Shown one piece after another: positions 5,701 to 25,596 of a stretch of DNA of 25,849 bases. Position numbers and translations under genes: made by a program. The notes beneath the pieces were generated by a model. It ran no database searches. It was not told where the DNA came from and saw nothing but the letters and a program-made list of their open reading frames with translations. The DNA is from a virus: positions 1-25,849 of IMG/VR virus record IMGVR_UViG_3300043425_000765, one strand, 5' to 3'. Position 1 is the first letter of the stretch. The number at the start of each line of letters is the position of its first letter.

Positions 5701-7217
5701 GCAATCATTGCCGCGGTGTCACTGATGTTTAATTTCAGATTGATCCGGTTCGACAGAAACAGGGTGTCTGATTCTTTCAGGTACGGCGACAGCATGGATG
5801 CAGTGTCACTGATATTCAATTTTGTGGCCAGTGCAGCGTTTACGTTTGATGTCCTGGCGTATGGGGACAGCATGGCTGTAGTGTCTGCCTTTCGAAGGTA
5901 TGGCGTCAACATTGACGACGTATCCGAAATGTTGACTTTCAACGCCAGGGCCGCGTTGACATTTGACGTCCTGGCATACGGTGATAACATGCTGGCGGTG
6001 TCTGAAATATTGACTTTCAAATTTATCCTGTTGGACAGGGTTGCTGTGTCTGCATCCCGCAAATACGGGGACAGCATGCTGGCAGTGTCCGAATATTTTA
6101 CCGTCGTCGCATTATTCGCCGGGGTGTATCCCAGGGCCTGGGCGATCGTTTTGTTTTTCCACAGGCGGGTCGTGCTGTCGTATGCTATGACCTGATTATT
6201 TATACTGTCAGTGATCAGGACGTTGTGCAGTTCCTCCAGTTCGAATCCGTTCTGTACGTTGACAAATATTTCCCCATTATTGGAATTTACCCTGGTGACG
6301 ACGCCGATGTAAACCATGTGGGCAGGGGCGACGGGTTTGTTCGCTGTTCCGTACAACAGATTTCCGTTTGTACCTAACCAGACCGGATCCCCGGCGGTGG
6401 CGCCTATGGTGTTCAGCCCCGAAAGGCGGCCCTGAATGATCACAAAACCCTGTCCATTTGTTGTTAGGTTCTGGTATAACAGGCCCAGCGTTTTGCTGGA
6501 TGTGGCGTCCGACGTGTTTGATGCTTTTGAAACCAGTACATTCGTGCCATCCGCCCCCGTTACATATACCGCCTGACCTTTGTTTATGGATTGTGTGGCT
6601 TTCACTGTTTCCCTGACGTCGGTGGTGTAATTGTCGATCCATGCGACATCATAATTTGTGGCGCTGTTTTTCGCCAGGATCTGGCCGGTGGTTCCGCCTA
6701 TGGGCAAACCAGCGACAGCCTTTGCATACGGGGCCAGCATGGCCGCTGTATCTGATATGTTCAGTTTTGTGTTTATTCGATTCGACAGGGTGACCGTATC
6801 CCCTTTCCTGAAATACGGGGACAACATGGCGGACGTATCCGATTTCCTCAAATATGGCAGCAACATGGACGCCGTATCTGAAATCCTGACCCGTAGGGCC
6901 ACCAGTGCAGAAACGGAATCATCGCCCTTTTGACGCCAGGCCCTGGTTGACATTATGACCGTATCGACCGCGGCGTTTGCCCCGATTTTTTCCCATTTCA
7001 CGCCAGTCCTGACATACAGGGAATCATTTAGGACCACCAGGGACCCAGGTAATTTGTTCTGGACCGTATCCGCGGGCATAACTATGGCAGCTTTCGCCTT
7101 CAGCCTGTTATATGTGAACCCGTACCCGTTGACCATAGTATATCTGGTCGTATCATTTTGACCGATGGCGGCCAGGGTGAACGACAAAACAGTAAACAGG
7201 GCGATCAGTTTTTTCAT
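2793..7217 (-). CDS. Large repeat-rich tail fibre protein with N-terminal signal peptide
   Basis: The 1474-residue protein is the likely receptor-binding fibre. Residues 1-20 form a signal peptide (MKKLIALFTVLSFTLAAIGQ), which is unusual for a fibre. A first set of xDTxxMLxPY repeats spans about 111-164. Residues about 210-335 form the KGQ-VYVTGADGTN domain seen in many fibres. A second, longer repeat block spans about 374-551, mixed with LSNRIN-K-NISDT units. From about 619 to 1306 there are nine or so GNVGIGTTSP...KL-V-NG units, typical of trimeric beta-structured fibres and surface proteins of Bacteroidota. The C-terminus ends in ATGYVQVEINGVKYKL. I see no S74 chaperone peptidase. It overlaps the LysM-like gene by 4 bases, and its position after the baseplate genes fits a fibre. 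Confidence 0.88.
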   Translation of the reverse strand: MKKLIALFTVLSFTLAAIGQNDTTRYTMVNGYGFTYNRLKAKAAIVMPADTVQNKLPGSLVVLNDSLYVRTGVKWEKIGANAAVDTVIMSTRAWRQKGDDSVSALVALRVRISDTASMLLPYLRKSDTSAMLSPYFRKGDTVTLSNRINTKLNISDTAAMLAPYAKAVAGLPIGGTTGQILAKNSATNYDVAWIDNYTTDVRETVKATQSINKGQAVYVTGADGTNVLVSKASNTSDATSSKTLGLLYQNLTTNGQGFVIIQGRLSGLNTIGATAGDPVWLGTNGNLLYGTANKPVAPAHMVYIGVVTRVNSNNGEIFVNVQNGFELEELHNVLITDSINNQVIAYDSTTRLWKNKTIAQALGYTPANNATTVKYSDTASMLSPYLRDADTATLSNRINLKVNISDTASMLSPYARTSNVNAALALKVNISDTSSMLTPYLRKADTTAMLSPYARTSNVNAALATKLNISDTASMLSPYLKESDTLFLSNRINLKLNISDTAAMIAPYLRKSDTTAMLTPYLRKADTLGLSNRINLKVNISDTSSMLSPYIRAAGYGLTKSGQSLLVDTAAIATRARVQKAVDSLGSGKTNGSGTTNYIPKWTAANTLGNSQIFEEGTNIIIGSAQASGNKLMVDNVSNYRGIAIRTSTANARPTISLINSNTAQYMSYIQDLNGSLKFGYANFDFGGHVEKMSLSTEGRLLLNTTADAGYQFDVNGTMRSVNGANFATTSGNVGIGTTSPTAKLSVPGSERILGVLRTASTNRTTFYDSDFALNNDGGGAQGFIYASNVGGSFPFDNYGETIIQANPRTGYTNGISLVTGTTSPSIKMRINEGGNVGIGTNFPGAKLDVNGGDLNVNNYTAPNDANYSNLALRAGTDATLGSLYFLTQLRPSATGSNRRVDIFAGDNIGYRNITYPYGNIGIGTTSPVSKLHVNGNQIFENGNQLKWKNSTGGTDAAKIMLFTDNNIYVDNPDGATIFRNAGFAEAFRVFNNRRVGINTSSTDYGYALQVIGEIYSNSNLIVDGNYRSNQGATALTAATGLNYIGKGDNTRFSGFNFQGVAASDMFFGRTANSDDLVISTSNTGSPAERVRFTQSGNVGIGTNSPGSYKLNVAGNMFTNGQFILDGIAQTLYRNTANTIGFDIGLLGGTSVADAYLYQRANSAMIFGTNNTERMRIFNNGRVFIGASPGDNGYQLDVNGNTRVTGKIDVTANVSIGHNIARSGTSDIAAQIYSSNAWLLYGAESSTGGSIFTGSSSYAAVVGSGYDKPLQFATNSTVRATISASGELLIGTTSNTNNGEILQVSGRSYFSQEVTIGMVDVSTYAASLVVKGPVFFVNNQSSSLKGLYLDTTVLAISNTTNVSPITVTGSTFTGNNGGDILNLQSTWNTTANVNGIYMLITNTASGSSSNFLNLTDGSKSFRVTKNAEVITAAPTDGTARPWKLGEYVTTAPTATGYVQVEINGVKYKLLAATY
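3300..5363 (-). repeat. GIGT-type repeat block of the tail fibre
   Basis: About nine spaced copies of a unit of the form N-(I/V)GIGT-x-SP-x(2-5)-(K/Y)-L-x-V-x-G are translated here, for example SGNVGIGTTSP, YGNIGIGTTSP and SGNVGIGTNSP. Some copies are degenerate, such as GRVFIGASPGD and RRVGINTSS. The units are spaced unevenly, with beta-rich unique sequence between them. This is protein-level repetition; the DNA copies have diverged. Confidence 0.8.
5564..6896 (-). repeat. SDTxxMLxPY repeats of the tail fibre shaft
   Basis: Eleven copies of a unit close to (N)ISDTASMLSPY are translated in two blocks, 6722-6896 and 5564-6098, separated by a unique domain. Several alternate with LSNRINLKVN or with TSNVNAALA-KVN linkers. 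Regular short units of this kind are expected to form an elongated trimeric shaft. Copy number could vary between related phages by recombination. Confidence 0.8.
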
Positions 7218-16550: not shown

Positions 16551-17039
16551 TTATTTCTGTTTCAGGTTGTTCATCACCCGCGCCATCAAATGGCCGGCGG
16601 TCGTGCTGACTTCATTTTTGTTTTGCGGATCCACCTGGATGGTTACCGCTGCTTTGTTCAGGGGCAGGGATTCCAGCATGGTTTTCACGCCATCCATGTC
16701 GTCTTTTGCCTTTGCGGTCCAGGCCGAAATCGTGACATCATCATTTTTGATGCGTCCCTGGGCGGCGTAACCTTTGACCATGTTGGTGGCATCTGCCAGG
16801 GCTTTAGCTTCCTGGGCGGCGTTCCTTTCGCTTTCCAGTTCGGTCAGTTTGTCCTGGGCGGCCTGCAGATCTTCAGCGGCTTTCCGGGCAGCTGTTTCGC
16901 GGGCAGCTATGTCGTCTTTCAGGGTTTGGATCGTTTGATCCCTTTCAGTCAGCTGGTTTTGTACGGATTCAATGGCCGCGACTATGCTGGCCTCCGCGGC
17001 GTCGTCCTGCAAACCCAGCTTGTTTGTCACCAGTTTCAT
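16551..17039 (-). CDS. Possible internal start for a free scaffold protein (Mu Z-like)
   Basis: Met222 of the protease-scaffold gene starts a 162-residue frame exactly at the border between protease and scaffold (MKLVTNKLGLQDDAAEASIV). The sequence before it (AACCCCACCGAAAAAA) is A-rich, like other starts here, and lacks a clear Shine-Dalgarno motif. The coiled coil of about 75 residues (SVQNQLTERDQTIQTLKDD onward) fits a scaffold core. In phage Mu, Z is made this way from within I. Whether it occurs here is inferred by analogy. Confidence 0.45.
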   Translation of the reverse strand: MKLVTNKLGLQDDAAEASIVAAIESVQNQLTERDQTIQTLKDDIAARETAARKAAEDLQAAQDKLTELESERNAAQEAKALADATNMVKGYAAQGRIKNDDVTISAWTAKAKDDMDGVKTMLESLPLNKAAVTIQVDPQNKNEVSTTAGHLMARVMNNLKQK

Positions 17040-17702
17040 TTTTTTCGGTGGGGTTTTGTTATCGAAATATTGATTCAAAATTTTGCTGGATGCTTTCCAG
17101 TATGCTGTCGGGCTGTCTGCCAGGGCTTTCCTGGGGGCGTTCAGGCCGGCTGTCGATTCCACTTCATCGCACAGGTTCATTGTCCTGGCTTCATCTGCAT
17201 TGATGAACGTTGTCCGCTCCATCATCACGGCGACAGCCTGGGCGTCCATCCCTGATTTCTGGGAAATGATTTTGTTCAGGCTTTCTTTCATGGACGACAA
17301 AACGCCGCTGGATTGATCCGCGCTGTCCGCGCTGTAGGGATTGTGGTACATTAAGATCCCATAATCAGCCATGATCCGCCGGCGGCCACATTGAAAAATC
17401 ACGCCGGCCATACTGGCAGCAATTCCCGCGCAATATGTATCGACTTTTGTTTTCGTCTTTAGGATGGCATTACAAATGTTGTACCCATCGACGACGGACC
17501 CGCCTATGGAATTGATCCATACCTGGATCCGTTTTTTACCCATACCGTCCAGCGTCATCAATTCAGCGGCGAACCTGCTGCCATCAATGCCGTACCCGTT
17601 GGATTCGTCAAACCCGCCTATGTGCTTATCCAGCATCATTATGGGTTCCTCTGATTCCGGGTTCCTGCAATATTCCATGTATGTTTTGTCAACGTATGCC
17701 AT
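16551..17702 (-). CDS. ClpP-like prohead protease fused to scaffold domain (Mu I/Z-like)
   Basis: The 383-residue protein has an N-terminal S14 (ClpP-like) protease domain (about residues 25-190) and a C-terminal Glu/Ala-rich coiled-coil scaffold (about 230-305), followed by a tail with a capsid-binding-like end. Oligomer motif WINSIGGSVVDGYNICNAI is present. The nucleophile is Ser97 in GIAASMAG and the base is His120 in YHNPYS. The acid should lie in MERTTFINADEA, where ClpP-type enzymes carry Asp; here the aligned position is Thr164. In Mu, protease I contains the scaffold Z as an internal start; Met222 (17039) in PPKKMKLVTNK may serve the same way. It lies directly before the capsid gene. 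Confidence 0.9.
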   Translation of the reverse strand: MAYVDKTYMEYCRNPESEEPIMMLDKHIGGFDESNGYGIDGSRFAAELMTLDGMGKKRIQVWINSIGGSVVDGYNICNAILKTKTKVDTYCAGIAASMAGVIFQCGRRRIMADYGILMYHNPYSADSADQSSGVLSSMKESLNKIISQKSGMDAQAVAVMMERTTFINADEARTMNLCDEVESTAGLNAPRKALADSPTAYWKASSKILNQYFDNKTPPKKMKLVTNKLGLQDDAAEASIVAAIESVQNQLTERDQTIQTLKDDIAARETAARKAAEDLQAAQDKLTELESERNAAQEAKALADATNMVKGYAAQGRIKNDDVTISAWTAKAKDDMDGVKTMLESLPLNKAAVTIQVDPQNKNEVSTTAGHLMARVMNNLKQK

Positions 17703-17733
17703 AGATCGCCTGTAAATTACTGACCCGTCAAAA

Positions 17734-17756
17734 TGTGGCCGTTTTTATACGCCACA
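17734..17756 (-). other. Weak hairpin before the protease gene
   Basis: TGTGGC (17734-17739) and GCCACA (17751-17756) can pair, with A/T-rich flanks that mirror each other (CAAAA...AAAATTG). On the minus strand the stem is followed by TTTTG, a weak terminator-like pattern. It lies in the 71-base gap between the small DNA-binding-like gene and the protease gene, so it could end or attenuate the transcript there. I found no convincing promoter in this gap. Confidence 0.4.
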
Positions 17757-17773
17757 AAATTGGATCCTGGTTG

Positions 17774-17992
17774 TCAATAGTGGTTTTTACCGTGTCGTAA
17801 AATTCTGTCATGTTCGTGTTTGGGCATGCGATCAAAAAATTCCTTTAGCGCCTGGGTGACGACCTCCGATTTCCTCATTTCATTTGCCGCGGCGTATGCC
17901 ACCGTCAAATTGTGATATTTCGGGGGTGGATAACTGTGAACCCGTCTTTTTAGCGCTTCCTTTGTGGATTGATAGGTTTTTCGGTTGCCCAT
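17774..17992 (-). CDS. Small basic protein, ribbon-helix-helix-like
   Basis: The 72-residue protein is basic, with many Lys, Arg and His. The segment KYHNLTVAYAAANEMRKSEVVTQALKEFFDRMP (residues about 25-57) reads as strand-helix-turn-helix, with the SEVVTQALKEFF second helix typical of ribbon-helix-helix DNA-binding proteins. It could be a small regulator of phage or host genes. The first 24 residues are a basic extension (RKTYQSTKEALKRRVHSYPPP). The gene lies alone between structural genes, 15 bases from the 96-residue gene and 71 bases from the protease. A weak hairpin follows. The family call is tentative. Confidence 0.55.
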   Translation of the reverse strand: MGNRKTYQSTKEALKRRVHSYPPPKYHNLTVAYAAANEMRKSEVVTQALKEFFDRMPKHEHDRILRHGKNHY

Positions 17993-21180: not shown

Positions 21181-21725
21181 ATTTTGTTTATTTCTCTGTC
21201 GATCAGTTTTAACTGTAATTTTCGAAGGTTTGCGCTGTCCCCCATAAATCGCCGCCGGGGCATTTTCATGGTGTGGGCTTTTACGTTCGCCTCCCCTGTC
21301 CGCTCAAATACAGGCGTACTTTTTAACCTCCGGGGCTTTTTTCGTGCCAGCCCTATAAATTCAGGCGTTGATCCCCTTTTGAAAATTGATCTGGTATGGG
21401 CGCGCCTGGTGCCATTGTATCCGTCATTATGGACGGCGGCGTATGGCAGGGCGACGACCAGCTGGATCCTGTCAAATGATTCAAACCTGATGGATCTGTT
21501 CACCGCCCGGCGAAGGTTTCCGGATTTCACCAGGATGGCGCGGCCCTGGGATTTTGGCCCGGTGTCCTTTCGTTTGTCCCATTTTACCACGCTTTTGTCA
21601 TCCCATCCCTGTTTTTCCCAGGATTTCACAAAAAAGGTTTGCGCCTGGTTCGACAACAGGACGGGCAGCGTCTTTTTTAGGCGCTCCATGTTTTGCAAAA
21701 CCTGATCCAGGCGGAATTTATTCAT
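21168..21725 (-). CDS. Phage virion morphogenesis protein (Mu gpG / P2 gpS-like)
   Basis: The 185-residue protein belongs to the family of gpG/gpS tail completion proteins. Features that match are the N-terminal helix (KFRLDQVLQNMERLKKTLPV), WEKQGWDDKSVVKWDKRK, the GRAILVKSGNLRRAVNRSIR segment (residues 61-80), and LVVALPYAAVHNDGYNGTRRAHTRSI, where YAAVHNDG is the family hallmark. The C-terminus (MPRRRFMGDSANLRKLQLKL) is also conserved. It is very basic. In Mu and P2 such proteins act in head-tail joining or tail completion. The gene overlaps both neighbours, by 4 and 13 bases. Confidence 0.88.
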   Translation of the reverse strand: MNKFRLDQVLQNMERLKKTLPVLLSNQAQTFFVKSWEKQGWDDKSVVKWDKRKDTGPKSQGRAILVKSGNLRRAVNRSIRFESFDRIQLVVALPYAAVHNDGYNGTRRAHTRSIFKRGSTPEFIGLARKKPRRLKSTPVFERTGEANVKAHTMKMPRRRFMGDSANLRKLQLKLIDREINKIWLA

Positions 21726-22087
21726 TTTTTCATCGTTAAAAGGTAGGCCGTCTGTCTGGCCGCGCCACTCAATTCATCCAGTATATTCTGCAGGGCCGTA
21801 TCCGGGGCGATGCTTCGCAGGTTTTGGCTGTCCAATATGGCGACGATGGACTGGATCCATGGCGTCATCCGTCCGGGTTCGTATGCCACCGCGCGGACCG
21901 TGCTGTCCCCTTTAGGGCGCCCGTAAATTCCAGCGTATGTTTCCACGAATTTATCCGCCAGGTCGTTCCAGGTCCCGTAAAATTCGCCCAGGGCTTCATG
22001 TTCGGCAAATGATTCCGTCTGCCAGTGATAACGACGGGCCTGAATTGTGATTTCATCAAATATTCGCGTCAGATCTTCGATGTTCAT
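21722..22087 (-). CDS. DUF5856 protein, ferritin/Dps-like
   Basis: The 121-residue protein is helical and contains HWQTESFAEHEALGEFYGTW, followed by NDLADKFVETYAGIYGR (residues about 21-57). This resembles DUF5856 phage proteins and the first metal-binding helix pair of Dps/ferritin: His21 and Trp22, His30, Asp45 and Glu49 are spaced like ferroxidase ligands. The C-terminal part (WIQSIVAILDSQN, then LQNILDELSGAARQTAYLL) supplies further helices. A role in iron binding or DNA protection is possible, but no test is in the sequence. It overlaps neighbours by 4 bases at both ends (ATGA type), tying it to the virion operon, so it may be packaged or support assembly. Confidence 0.78.
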   Translation of the reverse strand: MNIEDLTRIFDEITIQARRYHWQTESFAEHEALGEFYGTWNDLADKFVETYAGIYGRPKGDSTVRAVAYEPGRMTPWIQSIVAILDSQNLRSIAPDTALQNILDELSGAARQTAYLLTMKK

Positions 22088-22278
22088 TTTCCTTTTTTTA
22101 TGGGGGTGAATACAATTTTATTTCCCTGTTCGGGCAATGGTTTTTTGTGCATGTTGTCGCCGTGCATGATTTCATCTGGGATGCCATCAGGAAACGCATC
22201 ACAGGCATCAATGCCCCAAAAATGTTGGCATTTCAGGCAGATGTCGTTATCAATGATCGTTTTAATTTGTTCGGGCAT
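22084..22278 (-). CDS. Small Cys-rich phage protein of the MuF neighbourhood
   Basis: The 64-residue protein has the recurring pattern CLKCQHFWGIDACDAFPDGI-PDEIMHGDNMHKKP seen in many phages next to MuF genes. Three Cys (residues 14, 17, 26) and His residues (19, 39, 44) could form a small metal-binding site. It ends in a basic tail (TPIKKGK). The function is not known. It overlaps the 3' end of the MuF gene by 17 bases and the next gene by 4 bases, so translation is probably coupled to head-gene expression. Because of its conservation in many phages it is unlikely to be a specific immunity protein. Confidence 0.75.
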   Translation of the reverse strand: MPEQIKTIIDNDICLKCQHFWGIDACDAFPDGIPDEIMHGDNMHKKPLPEQGNKIVFTPIKKGK

Positions 22279-23884
22279 ATTCTTTCAATTTGTCAAAATA
22301 GTTTCTGATTAATGGGACCATGTTTTCCGGTTCCCGATAGTACATGACCAGGGATTCCGCGAAAACTTCATCATAATTCGACGCGCCATATTTACTGATC
22401 GTGTACAGATCGTCCGCGGTCAGGTTTGCATAAATTGACAGCCATTCTTTCCGCATTTCCTCGGTTTTGGCTTTCAATGTCCCCAGCCTGGTCCCTGGGG
22501 TGGCATCCCTGAACCTTTTTTGAATCAGGGAACGATTGATCAGGCCCAGTAATTGATCCTCTAAAACATGACCCGCTTCATGGATAAAAAGATCCTCCAC
22601 TATATCCGCCTCCTTTAGGTGAACCGTCCATCTTTTGTAATTGATCACTTTTTTCCATTGCTCCAGCTGCTTAATGTAGAATTTTTGAACGTCTGGACGA
22701 TTGATGTTTTTTTCAATGTTCAGCTGGGTTTCTTTCATTCGTTCCAGGTTCCTGGACTGATAATTTAGGACCCCGCTTTCAAATTGCGCTTTTACCTCCG
22801 TCGGGGTGGTTGCTGATTTTTTGAACGAAATCATTTTCCCGTTTGCGGCCCCCAGGGATTTCGCGCCGCCTTTTATTTCCTGCAGGGGCTGGATCTGGAA
22901 ATCATCAAAAATCATTTTCAGGGTCCGGTTGATATTGTTGGCATTTTCCAGGCTGATCCCGGAATATTTTACAGATACAGAAATGCCATTATCCATGGCC
23001 CATTTTTCGGCCTCCTTAATATTTTTGGCCGGCTTAAATCCCCCAGGGGCCGGGGCTTCAATTTTAGCCTGGCTGGGCGGGTCCGCTTTCGGGATGGGCA
23101 GATCAAAATTCCGCATCGCCAGCCCCCTGTCCCTGGGCGCGATGTCAAAATACGGGTGATCCTTGCTGAAAACGTACCCAGATTGACCAGGGTTCATTTT
23201 GAACAGGTCGTCCATCTGGGTTTCGGCTTCAGTCACTTTTTCCATCTTCGCGTCCATCCCCGTCGGGACCCCCTCGGACAGCTGCAGCAACAGGCACCGA
23301 CAGTTAAAATGATTCAGCGGGGCAATTTTTTTCCATATCGGATCATTCACCGGGGCAATGATTCCATCCAAATGCCTGCAGATGTCAGACGTTCGTTTGT
23401 CCATGACAGCGGAATATTCCAACAGGGGCAGGATGTCAGCATTTTTTTCAATGTCCAGCCATTTCCTGGCGTTCTGTGCCTGTCCTATGGCGGTGTCATA
23501 TTCCGTCCGCAACCAGGTTTTATTAAACAGGTCATACGTCTGTTCGGCCTTTTCGCGGAATTGTTTGAATGGTACTATCGTTCCATCGTCACTGATCAGC
23601 GCGCTGGACATAGTTCTGATCTGTTGGTATGTTTTGGCAGCGCTAAACAGATAGATATTTGACCGGAGTTCTGACAATAATTCCCGGTCCTGCATGTTAA
23701 ACCCAGGGGGCAGTTTTTCCCCTGACAGCGCGGTCCAGGTCGTGCCGAACCCCTCATAAACGCCCTGTTTCAGATAGTCTGCGATCTTAAAATACAACAG
23801 CGGGGGCAAACTTTCCTGGGTGACTTTACCCATGTAAATTTGCCGGAATAATTGCTGAATGTATTGATCACTGATCTGCAACAT
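22262..23884 (-). CDS. MuF-type head morphogenesis protein fused to a zinc-metallopeptidase-like domain
   Basis: The 540-residue protein has a MuF/SPP1-gp7 domain in the first 200 residues, with RTEYDTAIGQAQNARKW, the DKRTSDICRHLDGI stretch and the LNHFNCRCLLLQL end (residues about 126-202). MuF proteins sit inside the head or at the portal and are packaged with DNA. After a Pro-rich linker (about 260-285) comes a second domain. Its HEAGH motif (residues 435-439) follows a hydrophobic LF-I helix and is an HExxH zinc site. ASNYDEVFAESLVMYY (501-516) supplies Glu506 or Glu510 as likely third ligand and resembles the anthrax lethal-factor-like (ATLF) domain end. It may be a toxin/effector injected with DNA or a processing protease. 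Overlaps with both neighbours (1 and 17 bases). Confidence 0.88.
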   Translation of the reverse strand: MLQISDQYIQQLFRQIYMGKVTQESLPPLLYFKIADYLKQGVYEGFGTTWTALSGEKLPPGFNMQDRELLSELRSNIYLFSAAKTYQQIRTMSSALISDDGTIVPFKQFREKAEQTYDLFNKTWLRTEYDTAIGQAQNARKWLDIEKNADILPLLEYSAVMDKRTSDICRHLDGIIAPVNDPIWKKIAPLNHFNCRCLLLQLSEGVPTGMDAKMEKVTEAETQMDDLFKMNPGQSGYVFSKDHPYFDIAPRDRGLAMRNFDLPIPKADPPSQAKIEAPAPGGFKPAKNIKEAEKWAMDNGISVSVKYSGISLENANNINRTLKMIFDDFQIQPLQEIKGGAKSLGAANGKMISFKKSATTPTEVKAQFESGVLNYQSRNLERMKETQLNIEKNINRPDVQKFYIKQLEQWKKVINYKRWTVHLKEADIVEDLFIHEAGHVLEDQLLGLINRSLIQKRFRDATPGTRLGTLKAKTEEMRKEWLSIYANLTADDLYTISKYGASNYDEVFAESLVMYYREPENMVPLIRNYFDKLKEYARTN

Positions 23885-24204: not shown

Positions 24205-25596
24205 TTAGGAATAAAGGTGTTTCAGTCTGTTCTGGACCTTTTTTATTTCCTCCAGTTTGTCCGGATCTTCCAGGTCGTCATCTTCATCAGGTTCCGAGGC
24301 TTCAATTTCCCCGGTGGTTATGCCTGTGCGTTCCTCGAAATATTTTGCGTCCATCTTCAGCCCGGCGTTTTTCATCACCTGGGCGATTTCCGCGGTCACT
24401 TTATTGCTGGCATCTTCGCGCGCGCGGAACGCTTCACGTTCGGCGTCGTTTTTATATTCAAACCTGATCCCCTCTGGGATCTTGAATCCCAGTGCGCGCA
24501 TTTTCGGCAACAGCTGGCCGTTTACCATTCGTTCAATGAACTTTCCATCTTTCACCTGTTTATCCCGAAGGGCTGCAGCTATGGGGTTATCATCCCCCTG
24601 GCCGGCTCCCAGCTTTCCAGGCGTGCTGTCAATGGCGTCCGAATGACCCAGGATCAGTTTGGAAACCTTTTTTTCGCAGCGCTGTTCCAGGCTTTCATAA
24701 CTTTTGTACCCGGTTCCGCTGGTGCTGGTGTCCAAAAATTGGATTTCATCCATGGGGTCGATAATGGCATACCCGGCTGATCCCATGTTTTGAATGGCTG
24801 ATTCCAGTTCCGCCCTTTCGCTTTCCTCTGTTTTGGTGGTTTTGCCCACCCTGTATGGCATGGCGAACAGTTCCACAAAATCCCCGTTGTATCCCAGCGT
24901 ATTTCGCAGGAAAATTTCATACAGGCCGATTTTGTAAAACAGGCCATATCCACATGACCCCACACCGTTTTCGCTGGGGGTGGATACCCATATATGCCAG
25001 TCCTTATATGGTTCCTCTGCAAACTTTGCACCCGACAGACTGTAAATAAATTCAGCCACGTTCAGGCGGTCCGGGGATACGTTCCAGCGCCGGATCAGGC
25101 TGGTATTTTTGAACTGGTCGCCCTCTATGTCCCCTAGGGAAATAAGACTGTACCCAAAAAACAGGGCGTCCAGGGCGTAATTGATCACCAGGTCAAACCA
25201 GTCACCATTGAACAGATCTTTCAGGGTTTCAACGTCATTTCCTGCCTGATCTTTGAAACAAAAATCCCTTAATAGGGTCAGATCCTTTCGGCGGTCCATT
25301 AAACTGTAAACGTGACCGTTTAGGATCACGTCAATGAACATACGCTGCATCTTTACCCGGTGGGGATACCAGGCGTTTTCCGCCTCTGTGACCGCTTCCC
25401 GCCACATGGCGACGTCATGACGCAAACGCTGCAGCTGGACCGGGGCGATGTAGTTGGTCAGGTTCCTGGCCAGATCTGTCGATCCGCCGCCCTGACGTAC
25501 AGCCACGCTGCCAGGGGCGCCAAAGGTCACCGGCTGGGTGTTTGCGTTGAATCCCGCGGCGTTCCTTATGGATGATATTCGATTTCGTTTGCCCAT
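24205..25596 (-). CDS. Portal protein, DUF935 family (Mu gp29-like)
   Basis: The 463-residue protein forms the ring through which DNA enters the head. DUF935 features are visible: HVYSLMDRRKDLTLLRDF and LKDLFNGDWFDLVINYALD-ALFFGYSLISLG (residues about 93-155), then FYKIGLYEIFLRNTLGYNGD, FVELFAMPYRVGKTTKTEES (about 221-265) and the YAIIDPMDEIQFLDTSTSGT region (about 280-300). The LILGHSDAIDSTPGKLGAGQ segment with the following RDKQVKDGKFIERMVNGQLL helix (about 316-362) is the hallmark stretch. The acidic C-terminus (SEPDEDDDLEDPDKLEEIKK) may touch the scaffold or terminase. It overlaps the DUF1320 stop by one base, an unusual neighbour: in Mu, gp28 terminase precedes the portal. Confidence 0.93.
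   Translation of the reverse strand: MGKRNRISSIRNAAGFNANTQPVTFGAPGSVAVRQGGGSTDLARNLTNYIAPVQLQRLRHDVAMWREAVTEAENAWYPHRVKMQRMFIDVILNGHVYSLMDRRKDLTLLRDFCFKDQAGNDVETLKDLFNGDWFDLVINYALDALFFGYSLISLGDIEGDQFKNTSLIRRWNVSPDRLNVAEFIYSLSGAKFAEEPYKDWHIWVSTPSENGVGSCGYGLFYKIGLYEIFLRNTLGYNGDFVELFAMPYRVGKTTKTEESERAELESAIQNMGSAGYAIIDPMDEIQFLDTSTSGTGYKSYESLEQRCEKKVSKLILGHSDAIDSTPGKLGAGQGDDNPIAAALRDKQVKDGKFIERMVNGQLLPKMRALGFKIPEGIRFEYKNDAEREAFRAREDASNKVTAEIAQVMKNAGLKMDAKYFEERTGITTGEIEASEPDEDDDLEDPDKLEEIKKVQNRLKHLYS

What the first reader, a model, noticed from the sequence alone, without database searches (positions are those of the whole stretch)
22262..23100. MuF head protein fused to an HEAGH (ATLF-like) metallopeptidase domain
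The C-terminal 250 residues of the MuF protein carry HEAGH (435-439) and, 60-70 residues on, ASNYDEVFAESLVMYY. That pairing is the zinc signature of gluzincin-type and lethal-factor-like peptidases. MuF proteins with toxin-like C-terminal domains are known from temperate phages (polymorphic MuF toxins), and an enzyme packaged at the portal could be injected into the host with DNA. The gene directly after it is a broadly conserved Cys-rich phage protein, not an obvious immunity gene. The target could be a host defence or signalling protein, or the domain could process capsid parts.
Basis: partly seen in the sequence, partly recalled or inferred. Interest (0 to 1): 0.72.

Follow-up and report, generated by a model that had tools for sequence, protein, structure and literature searches.

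The report
Swappable phage protease with matched partner
A phage head protein carries at its end a protein-cutting enzyme domain built like that of anthrax lethal factor, and related phages gain, lose or exchange this domain as one block together with a small neighbouring gene that matches it, so the pair looks like a delivered weapon with its own safety catch.

Summary
Confirmed: window 22262..23884(-) is a 540-aa MuF protein with HEAGH at 435-439. Its C-terminal domain (about residues 283-540) has a zinc-peptidase fold: a 50-sequence profile finds the lethal factor catalytic domain first in the PDB (E 2.9e-6), and the AlphaFold model matches it at Z 12.5, then PPEPs at Z 8-10. H435, E436, H439, E506, E510 are invariant in 50 of 50 relatives. 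The ATLF Pfam cut-off is not reached.

The domain and the small Cys-rich gene behind it (22084..22278) form one cassette: in 81 loci taken by MuF N-terminus, the Cys gene occurs in 0 of 65 short MuFs. Three peptidase types each have their own partner-gene family, with no crossing in the loci examined. Two lytic Flavobacterium phages, about 99% identical over the aligned genome, differ chiefly in exactly this block: type A plus partner A against type B plus partner B.

Best reading: a head-carried peptidase effector with a cognate partner, probably an inhibitor. Delivery, substrate and inhibition are untested. MuF metallopeptidases are known (Jamet 2017); the typed pairs, the clean exchange and the lytic carriers are the new parts.

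The parts
22262..23884 (-). MuF head protein with C-terminal peptidase domain, 540 aa
   Evidence: ORF and translation; Phage_Mu_F 54.8 bits over cut-off 29.6 at residues 112-199
23093..23884 (-). MuF N-terminal part (residues 1-264), the part that close relatives keep
   Evidence: 70% identical to L009, whose MuF ends at residue 267
22265..23038 (-). type A zinc-metallopeptidase domain, about residues 283-540
   Evidence: alignment A6 of 50; AlphaFold model pLDDT 76.3, pTM 0.70; lethal factor Z 12.5
22568..22582 (-). HEAGH, residues 435-439: predicted zinc ligands H435, H439 and general base E436
   Evidence: on helix 159-177 of the model; roles inferred
22355..22390 (-). Y499 to E510: near-invariant Y499, invariant E506 and E510 (third zinc ligand is probably one of the two Glu)
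   Evidence: E506 and E510 on helix 235-248 of the model
22084..22278 (-). small Cys-rich partner gene (partner A), 64 aa, invariant C14 C17 C26 A28 F29 P34 H44; start overlaps the end of muf
   Evidence: model pLDDT 82, no PDB fold match
21722..22087 (-). next gene; its homologue directly follows the short muf in L009 (right flank of the cassette)
24205..25596 (-). portal protein upstream (Portal_Mu)
   Evidence: 178.5 bits, cut-off 23.9
16551..17702 (-). separate ClpP-like head maturation protease
   Evidence: phrog_2976 E 9.2e-39

Best explanation
The C-terminal part of this MuF protein is a zinc metallopeptidase effector domain of the lethal factor / PPEP fold, carried in the phage head near the portal on the MuF anchor. 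It belongs to a two-gene cassette: the peptidase domain plus a small cognate partner gene directly after it. The cassette is inserted, lost or exchanged as a block at the end of muf. Most likely the enzyme enters the host cell with the DNA and cuts a host protein (defence, signalling or another early target), while the partner, made in the producing cell, holds the enzyme inactive until it is packaged. Shown by computation here: fold, invariant active site, presence/absence as a unit, one partner family per peptidase type, exchange between near-identical phages. Inferred: enzymatic activity, place in the virion, injection, host target, and that the partner is an inhibitor.
For: Fold and site. 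MuF anchor. Unit gain and loss: of 81 loci taken by MuF N-terminus (best 80 of 182 relatives plus L009), the Cys gene occurs in 0 of 65 short MuFs and in 7 of 13 with an HExxH extension; the other 6 have other peptidase types with other small genes. The tree needs 6 changes for the pair, starred branches force 6; the window's five nearest rows are all short. The same domain (51% identical) plus Cys gene sits in L003 on a far MuF (32% over 63 residues) beside another portal family. Partner specificity: type B 7 of 7 rows partner B; type C 18 of 20 partner C; no crossing. Exchange: lotta8-1 and pippi8-1 align at 98.8-99.96% except 6623-7010 and 16949-17850, the latter running from about MuF codon 275 to the stop codon of the small gene. 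Partner distances follow the peptidase domain (partial r 0.72), hardly the MuF part (partial r 0.12), in 27 loci. One natural fusion of Cys domain and peptidase end, L183. Own head protease present.
Against: No toxicity, delivery or inhibition data. Partner A belongs to a wide family: of 71 genome loci with an upstream ORF only 10 have HExxH in the ORF picked; some follow proteins with an ADP-ribosyltransferase (L215 with MuF over cut-off, L225 with MuF under cut-off, L210 without a MuF match), and some seem to stand apart from phage genes, so it is not a peptidase-only gene. Of 11 loci found by the domain itself and not cut, 5 have no partner (L014; L015-L018, one protein with an extra C-terminal domain). 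The 13 uncut C-extensions seen in this MuF lineage are all of HExxH type, whereas polymorphic toxins usually also swap in nucleases. Plain Foldseek against the PDB gave no E <= 0.001. The sign test on independent pairs has median p 0.06.
Confidence: 0.6

Rival explanations
1. The peptidase processes phage proteins: it cuts MuF itself or other head parts during assembly or release, and the small gene is an assembly factor.
For: Iyer 2017 proposes autoprocessing for MPTase domains of head-packaged polyvalent proteins (PMC5512222, passages). MuF is a head protein family.
Against: The window has a ClpP-like head maturation protease and lotta8-1 a protease annotated by the Clp Pfam family. 65 of 81 related MuFs lack the domain. 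Near-identical phages have unlike peptidase types here, which a fixed cleavage site in the capsid would not favour.
Confidence: 0.17
2. The domain is an injected effector, but the partner is not an inhibitor: it is a loading factor, folding helper or second effector.
For: Partner A is strongly conserved (7 invariant columns in 42 sequences) and its family also follows proteins with an ADP-ribosyltransferase (L215, L225, L210), unlike a narrow inhibitor. Carriers include lytic isolates, where no lysogen needs protection (PMC7077304, passages).
Against: Each peptidase type has its own unrelated partner family; one general loading factor for the MuF anchor would not change with the C-domain. Partner distances follow the C-domain, not the MuF part.
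Confidence: 0.25
3. The domain is a dead enzyme kept as a structural or DNA-ejection part.
For: Little: phrog_21401 (pilot protein for DNA ejection) matches residues 286-357 at E 4.3e-6.
Against: H435, E436, H439, E506, E510 invariant in 50 of 50.
Confidence: 0.04

Closest known systems
MuF polymorphic toxins of temperate phages (Jamet 2017, PMC5576092; passages and section 8 seen)
   Same: MuF N-terminus, variable C-terminal domain, small gene after it; 20% of their 191 putative MuF toxins have a metallopeptidase domain and 89.4% a small ORF downstream
   Different: Here three peptidase types each with its own partner family, exchange between near-identical phages, and presence in phages described as lytic, whereas that paper found no virulent phage with a known MuF toxin domain
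Anthrax lethal factor catalytic domain (Pfam ATLF; peptidase family M34 by recall)
   Same: Fold (Z 12.5, rmsd 3.0, 153 residues), HExxH plus downstream Glu
   Different: Below the ATLF cut-off (20.3 vs 27.4 bits) and fused to a phage MuF
Pro-Pro endopeptidases PPEP-1, -2, -3
   Same: Fold, Z 8-10
   Different: PPEPs are stand-alone enzymes (recalled); substrate choice unknown here
MPTase domains of phage polyvalent proteins (Iyer 2017, PMC5512222; passages seen)
   Same: Head-associated zincin domains, with lethal factor as profile match
   Different: Single MuF plus peptidase with a cognate small gene, not a large multi-domain protein
Bxa, MuF ADP-ribosyltransferase toxin of a Bacteroides prophage (PMC11699363; passages seen)
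   Same: MuF toxin with small immunity genes in Bacteroidota
   Different: Other enzyme; the words metallo, peptidase and zinc do not occur in that text

Membership tests
MuF polymorphic toxins (Jamet 2017) | N-terminal MuF domain | tested here: met
   54.8 bits, cut-off 29.6
MuF polymorphic toxins (Jamet 2017) | C-terminal domain that varies between related proteins | tested here: met
   absent in nearest relatives, exchanged between lotta8-1 and pippi8-1
MuF polymorphic toxins (Jamet 2017) | small ORF directly downstream, tied to the toxin domain | tested here: met
MuF polymorphic toxins (Jamet 2017) | encoded by temperate phages | tested here: inconclusive
   the window is a 25.8-kb virus record in which no integrase search was made; lotta8-1 and pippi8-1 are described as lytic and have no annotated integrase
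MuF polymorphic toxins (Jamet 2017) | toxicity neutralised by the immunity protein | not testable with these tools
   needs expression tests
ATLF (Pfam PF07737) | score over the curated cut-off | tested here: not met
   18.4 bits (whole protein) and 20.3 (C-domain) against 27.4; L003 24.2; 9 of 50 relatives match ATLF at E <= 0.01, best 7e-6
ATLF (Pfam PF07737) | fold of the lethal factor catalytic domain | tested here: met
   Z 12.5; profile E 2.9e-6
ATLF (Pfam PF07737) | HExxH plus downstream Glu ligand, Tyr near it | tested here: met
   H435, E436, H439, E506, E510 invariant, Y499 in at least 90%; which Glu binds zinc and the role of the Tyr rest on recalled lethal factor chemistry
PPEP | cleavage between two prolines | not testable with these tools
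   fold match only
Polyvalent-protein MPTase clades (Iyer 2017) | membership of one of 12 described clades | not tested
   the alignments of that paper were not compared

The most novel reading that the evidence does not exclude
A polymorphic effector locus in Bacteroidota phages, lytic ones included, in which the alleles are head-delivered zinc peptidases, each paired with a dedicated small inhibitor; the phages swap peptidase-inhibitor pairs against changing host defence proteins, so the alleles are host-range or counter-defence cargo and not weapons of lysogens.
Probability: 0.3. Interest if true: 0.8.

Novelty: new variant of a known kind. Interest (0 to 1): 0.64.

Why it matters
Whether the small genes after MuF effectors are true cognate partners, and what MuF peptidases do, are open questions. 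Here nature supplies a near-isogenic pair: two plaque-forming phages isolated on one host that differ mainly in which peptidase-partner cassette they carry. That makes delivery, host target and inhibition directly testable. It would also extend MuF effectors to lytic phages, where a role in lysogeny or in protecting lysogens cannot explain them.

Tried and rejected
Partner A as a peptidase-only gene: rejected, the family is much wider. The ORF picker takes the longest ORF ending within 700 bases upstream, so some picks are wrong frames and 10 of 71 is rough. Partner A as a general companion of MuF: rejected for Bacillota, where of 42 MuF-bearing genomes (of 299) only 2 have a family member, both on other contigs than their MuF match.

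No Pfam or NCBIfam family for the partner (weak chance-level rows only); no solved relative by sequence or fold (Foldseek gave almost no candidates, so this is no evidence of a new fold). Foldseek of the peptidase against the PDB gave no E <= 0.001; the profile search and the VIA second look carry the assignment. BLAST of the C-domain alone against phage records found nothing, though the whole MuF reached residue 515 in lotta8-1.

Partner-found loci bias (90 of 96 type A ORFs have partner A, 5 none, 1 without room), and contigs repeat there (for example L002, L008, L019; L013 and L060). Unbiased are 6 of 11 uncut loci with the domain have the partner; the 5 without are 2 proteins; 7 of 7 type A, one of them, L146, not recognised by the domain profile. 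The partner B and C profiles were built from 3 and 4 of the loci counted; leaving those contigs out, B is 3 of 3 and C 14 of 16 (L145 and L279 are one contig, L283, L285, L286, L288 are those of L175, L169, L176, L134). The Mantel test used partner-found loci only. The phrog match of residues 286-357 to an ejection protein was not followed. RNA, tandem-repeat and promoter features were not looked for.

Literature: searches listed no paper that, by title or abstract, describes these peptidase-partner pairs; the library holds open-access papers only, and I read passages of five papers.

Full report
What is there. The window is a virus record of 25,849 bases. Ten of its ORFs were scanned against PHROGs and give tail sheath, tape measure, baseplate hub, tail fibre, a ClpP-like head maturation protease and an endolysin, so it is a contractile-tailed phage or a fragment of one. 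On the minus strand follow portal (Portal_Mu), a 102-aa gene, muf (22262..23884), a 64-aa Cys-rich gene (22084..22278) and further genes. Two contigs carry the same domain at 100% (L002 over its whole length, L004 to query residue 107, where the contig ends).

Peptidase. Single-sequence searches are weak: ATLF 20.3 bits against a cut-off of 27.4, Peptidase_M90 16.6 against 26.2. An iterated profile started from the window and L003 (51% identical) gives 92 domain hits in the fetched loci, copies included. In the 50-sequence alignment A6 the invariant columns are H435, E436, H439, E506 and E510, with Y499 and A509 in at least 90%. The profile of A6 against PDB sequences gives lethal factor first (E 2.9e-6 to 1.2e-4), then weakly myroilysin (E 0.0017 or worse) and, among others, MtfA-like proteins (0.015 and 0.047). 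The AlphaFold model has pLDDT 76.3 and pTM 0.70, with HExxH on one helix and the two Glu on a later helix. VIA-align gives lethal factor Z 12.5 (153 residues, rmsd 3.0), PPEPs Z 8-10 and MtfA-like 3dl1 Z 9.1; rows of unrelated proteins reach at most 7.4. In BFVD the three hits at E <= 0.001 are phage proteins named lethal factor, minor capsid protein and metalloprotease. The chemistry (two His, Glu, nearby Tyr) is recalled from lethal factor.

The module. L009 is a close relative: its MuF is 70% identical over residues 2-268 but stops at 267 aa, and the homologue of window gene 21722..22087 starts straight after, so both the peptidase domain and the Cys gene are absent. L003 has a far MuF front (32% identity over 63 residues; Phage_Mu_F over cut-off), another portal family (Phage_portal), and the same domain plus the same small gene. 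To test this without selecting on the cassette, loci were fetched by the MuF N-terminus alone (best 80 of 182) and classified with L009: 65 short MuFs (224-286 aa; Cys gene in 0; one has only 249 bases downstream), one with an internal insert and short end (0), 13 with an HExxH extension (7 with the Cys gene), 2 cut by the contig end. The tree has 81 rows: 78 of these plus window, lotta8-1 and FPSV-S27. The extension-plus-Cys state needs 6 changes and starred branches force 6; in independent pairs on starred branches (7) the Cys gene goes with the extension in a mean of 4.8, against it in 0.0, and does not differ in 2.2; median sign-test p 0.0625. From the other side, 80 loci fetched by the Cys gene alone (best 80 of 118) gave 79 with an upstream ORF, 77 of which hold HExxH; the exceptions are L030, cut by the contig end, and L093. 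Control: 2 of 236 other ORFs. The cassette has lower GC than its flanks (domain 0.457, Cys gene 0.417, MuF front 0.494, next gene 0.529), though the 102-aa gene before muf is also low (0.454).

Three matched types. The six HExxH extensions without the Cys gene fall into two other peptidase types. Type B (pippi8-1, L145, L149 and relatives) is followed by an unrelated acidic small gene in 7 of 7 rows from 6 contigs; type C is followed by a third small-gene family in 18 of 20 loci (L298 resembles it by eye, L300 shows none). Leaving out the contigs from which the small-gene profiles were built, this is 3 of 3 and 14 of 16. No type B or C locus has partner A, and none of 96 type A ORFs has partner B or C. 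In 27 type A loci with a complete MuF part, partner distances correlate with the peptidase domain (r 0.76; partial 0.72; 0 of 2000 shuffles as high) and hardly with the MuF part once the domain is allowed for (partial 0.12; 166 of 2000).

A natural exchange. Flavobacterium phages lotta8-1 and pippi8-1 (Pippivirus, isolated on strain LMO8, treated as lytic; PMC7077304, passages) align at 98.8-99.96% over their 34.7 kb except two places: 6623-7010 and 16949-17850 of lotta8-1. The second runs from about MuF codon 275 into the stop codon of the small gene. lotta8-1 has type A with partner A, pippi8-1 type B with partner B. lotta8-2 is like lotta8-1 there (99.5%). Both phages plate on LMO8 and, less well, on LMO6 and LMO9, so no host-range difference is reported between them in the passages I saw. 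The label structural protein on these MuFs rests on sequence similarity, not on proteomics. Neither genome has an annotated integrase.

The partner. It has three invariant Cys and an invariant His, which suggests a small zinc knuckle (inference). The model is fairly confident but irregular (pLDDT 82, pTM 0.61) and has no fold match. The family is wider than this system: of 80 genome loci (best 80 of 100), 71 have an upstream ORF and 10 of these hold HExxH. Others follow an ADP-ribosyltransferase: L215 with MuF over its cut-off, L225 with MuF under it, L210 without a MuF match; L190 and L230 are MuF with unknown C-terminus, L242 a Phage_min_cap2 protein. One Omnitrophota ORF (L183) joins a Cys domain to a peptidase end that matches positions 128-202 of the 203-position domain profile at E 1.4e-4. 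Immunity families that serve several toxin types are known, such as SUKH (recalled).

How it likely works, and limits. MuF proteins sit at the portal (recalled); a peptidase on the end of MuF would be packaged and could enter the host with DNA. The matched small gene is best explained as an inhibitor that keeps the enzyme off in the producing cell, but a loading role is not excluded. The uncut C-extensions in this MuF lineage are all of HExxH type (13 of 13), which fits a specialised host-protein target better than general killing. Lytic carriers fit early-infection help better than protection of lysogens. None of this is shown by experiment.

Known and new. MuF toxins with metallopeptidase domains and downstream small ORFs are described (PMC5576092), and lethal-factor-like MPTases in phage polyvalent proteins too (PMC5512222). 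Zhang 2012 lists lethal-factor-like toxins with other delivery systems (PVC, T2SS) and, in the passages seen, not with MuF (PMC3482391). The typed peptidase-partner pairs, the block exchange between near-identical phages and the lytic carriers were not found in the searches made.

Noticed in passing
L183:560-1891: Natural fusion in an Omnitrophota contig: Cys-rich domain at the N-terminus, HEFGH peptidase end at the C-terminus of one 444-aa ORF.
   Followed up: partly
L006 (Flavobacterium phage FPSV-S27) 3774-4688: Short MuF followed by an annotated DNA methylase gene at the same position, so the end of muf may be a general cargo site.
   Followed up: no
L303 6623-7010: The only other place where lotta8-1 and pippi8-1 do not align; small hypothetical genes.
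   Followed up: no
L015:4023-6032: MuF-type ORF with the peptidase domain followed by further C-terminal sequence and no partner gene within 700 bases (same protein in L016-L018).
   Followed up: partly
L239, L252, L256 and other Rhodothermia-type loci: Cys-family genes in Longimonas, Salinivenus and relatives; the neighbourhood was not examined beyond the upstream ORF; function unknown.
   Followed up: no
L190, L200, L214, L230, L250: Methanogen loci: Cys-family gene after proteins with similar C-terminal ends by eye; in L190 and L230 these are MuF proteins with unknown C-terminus.
   Followed up: partly
L126: MuF with about 120 extra residues inside but the short end and no partner gene.
   Followed up: no
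L278 1-180: Human-gut phage contig with a Cys-family gene convergent to a MuF gene without HExxH, unlike the usual order.
   Followed up: no
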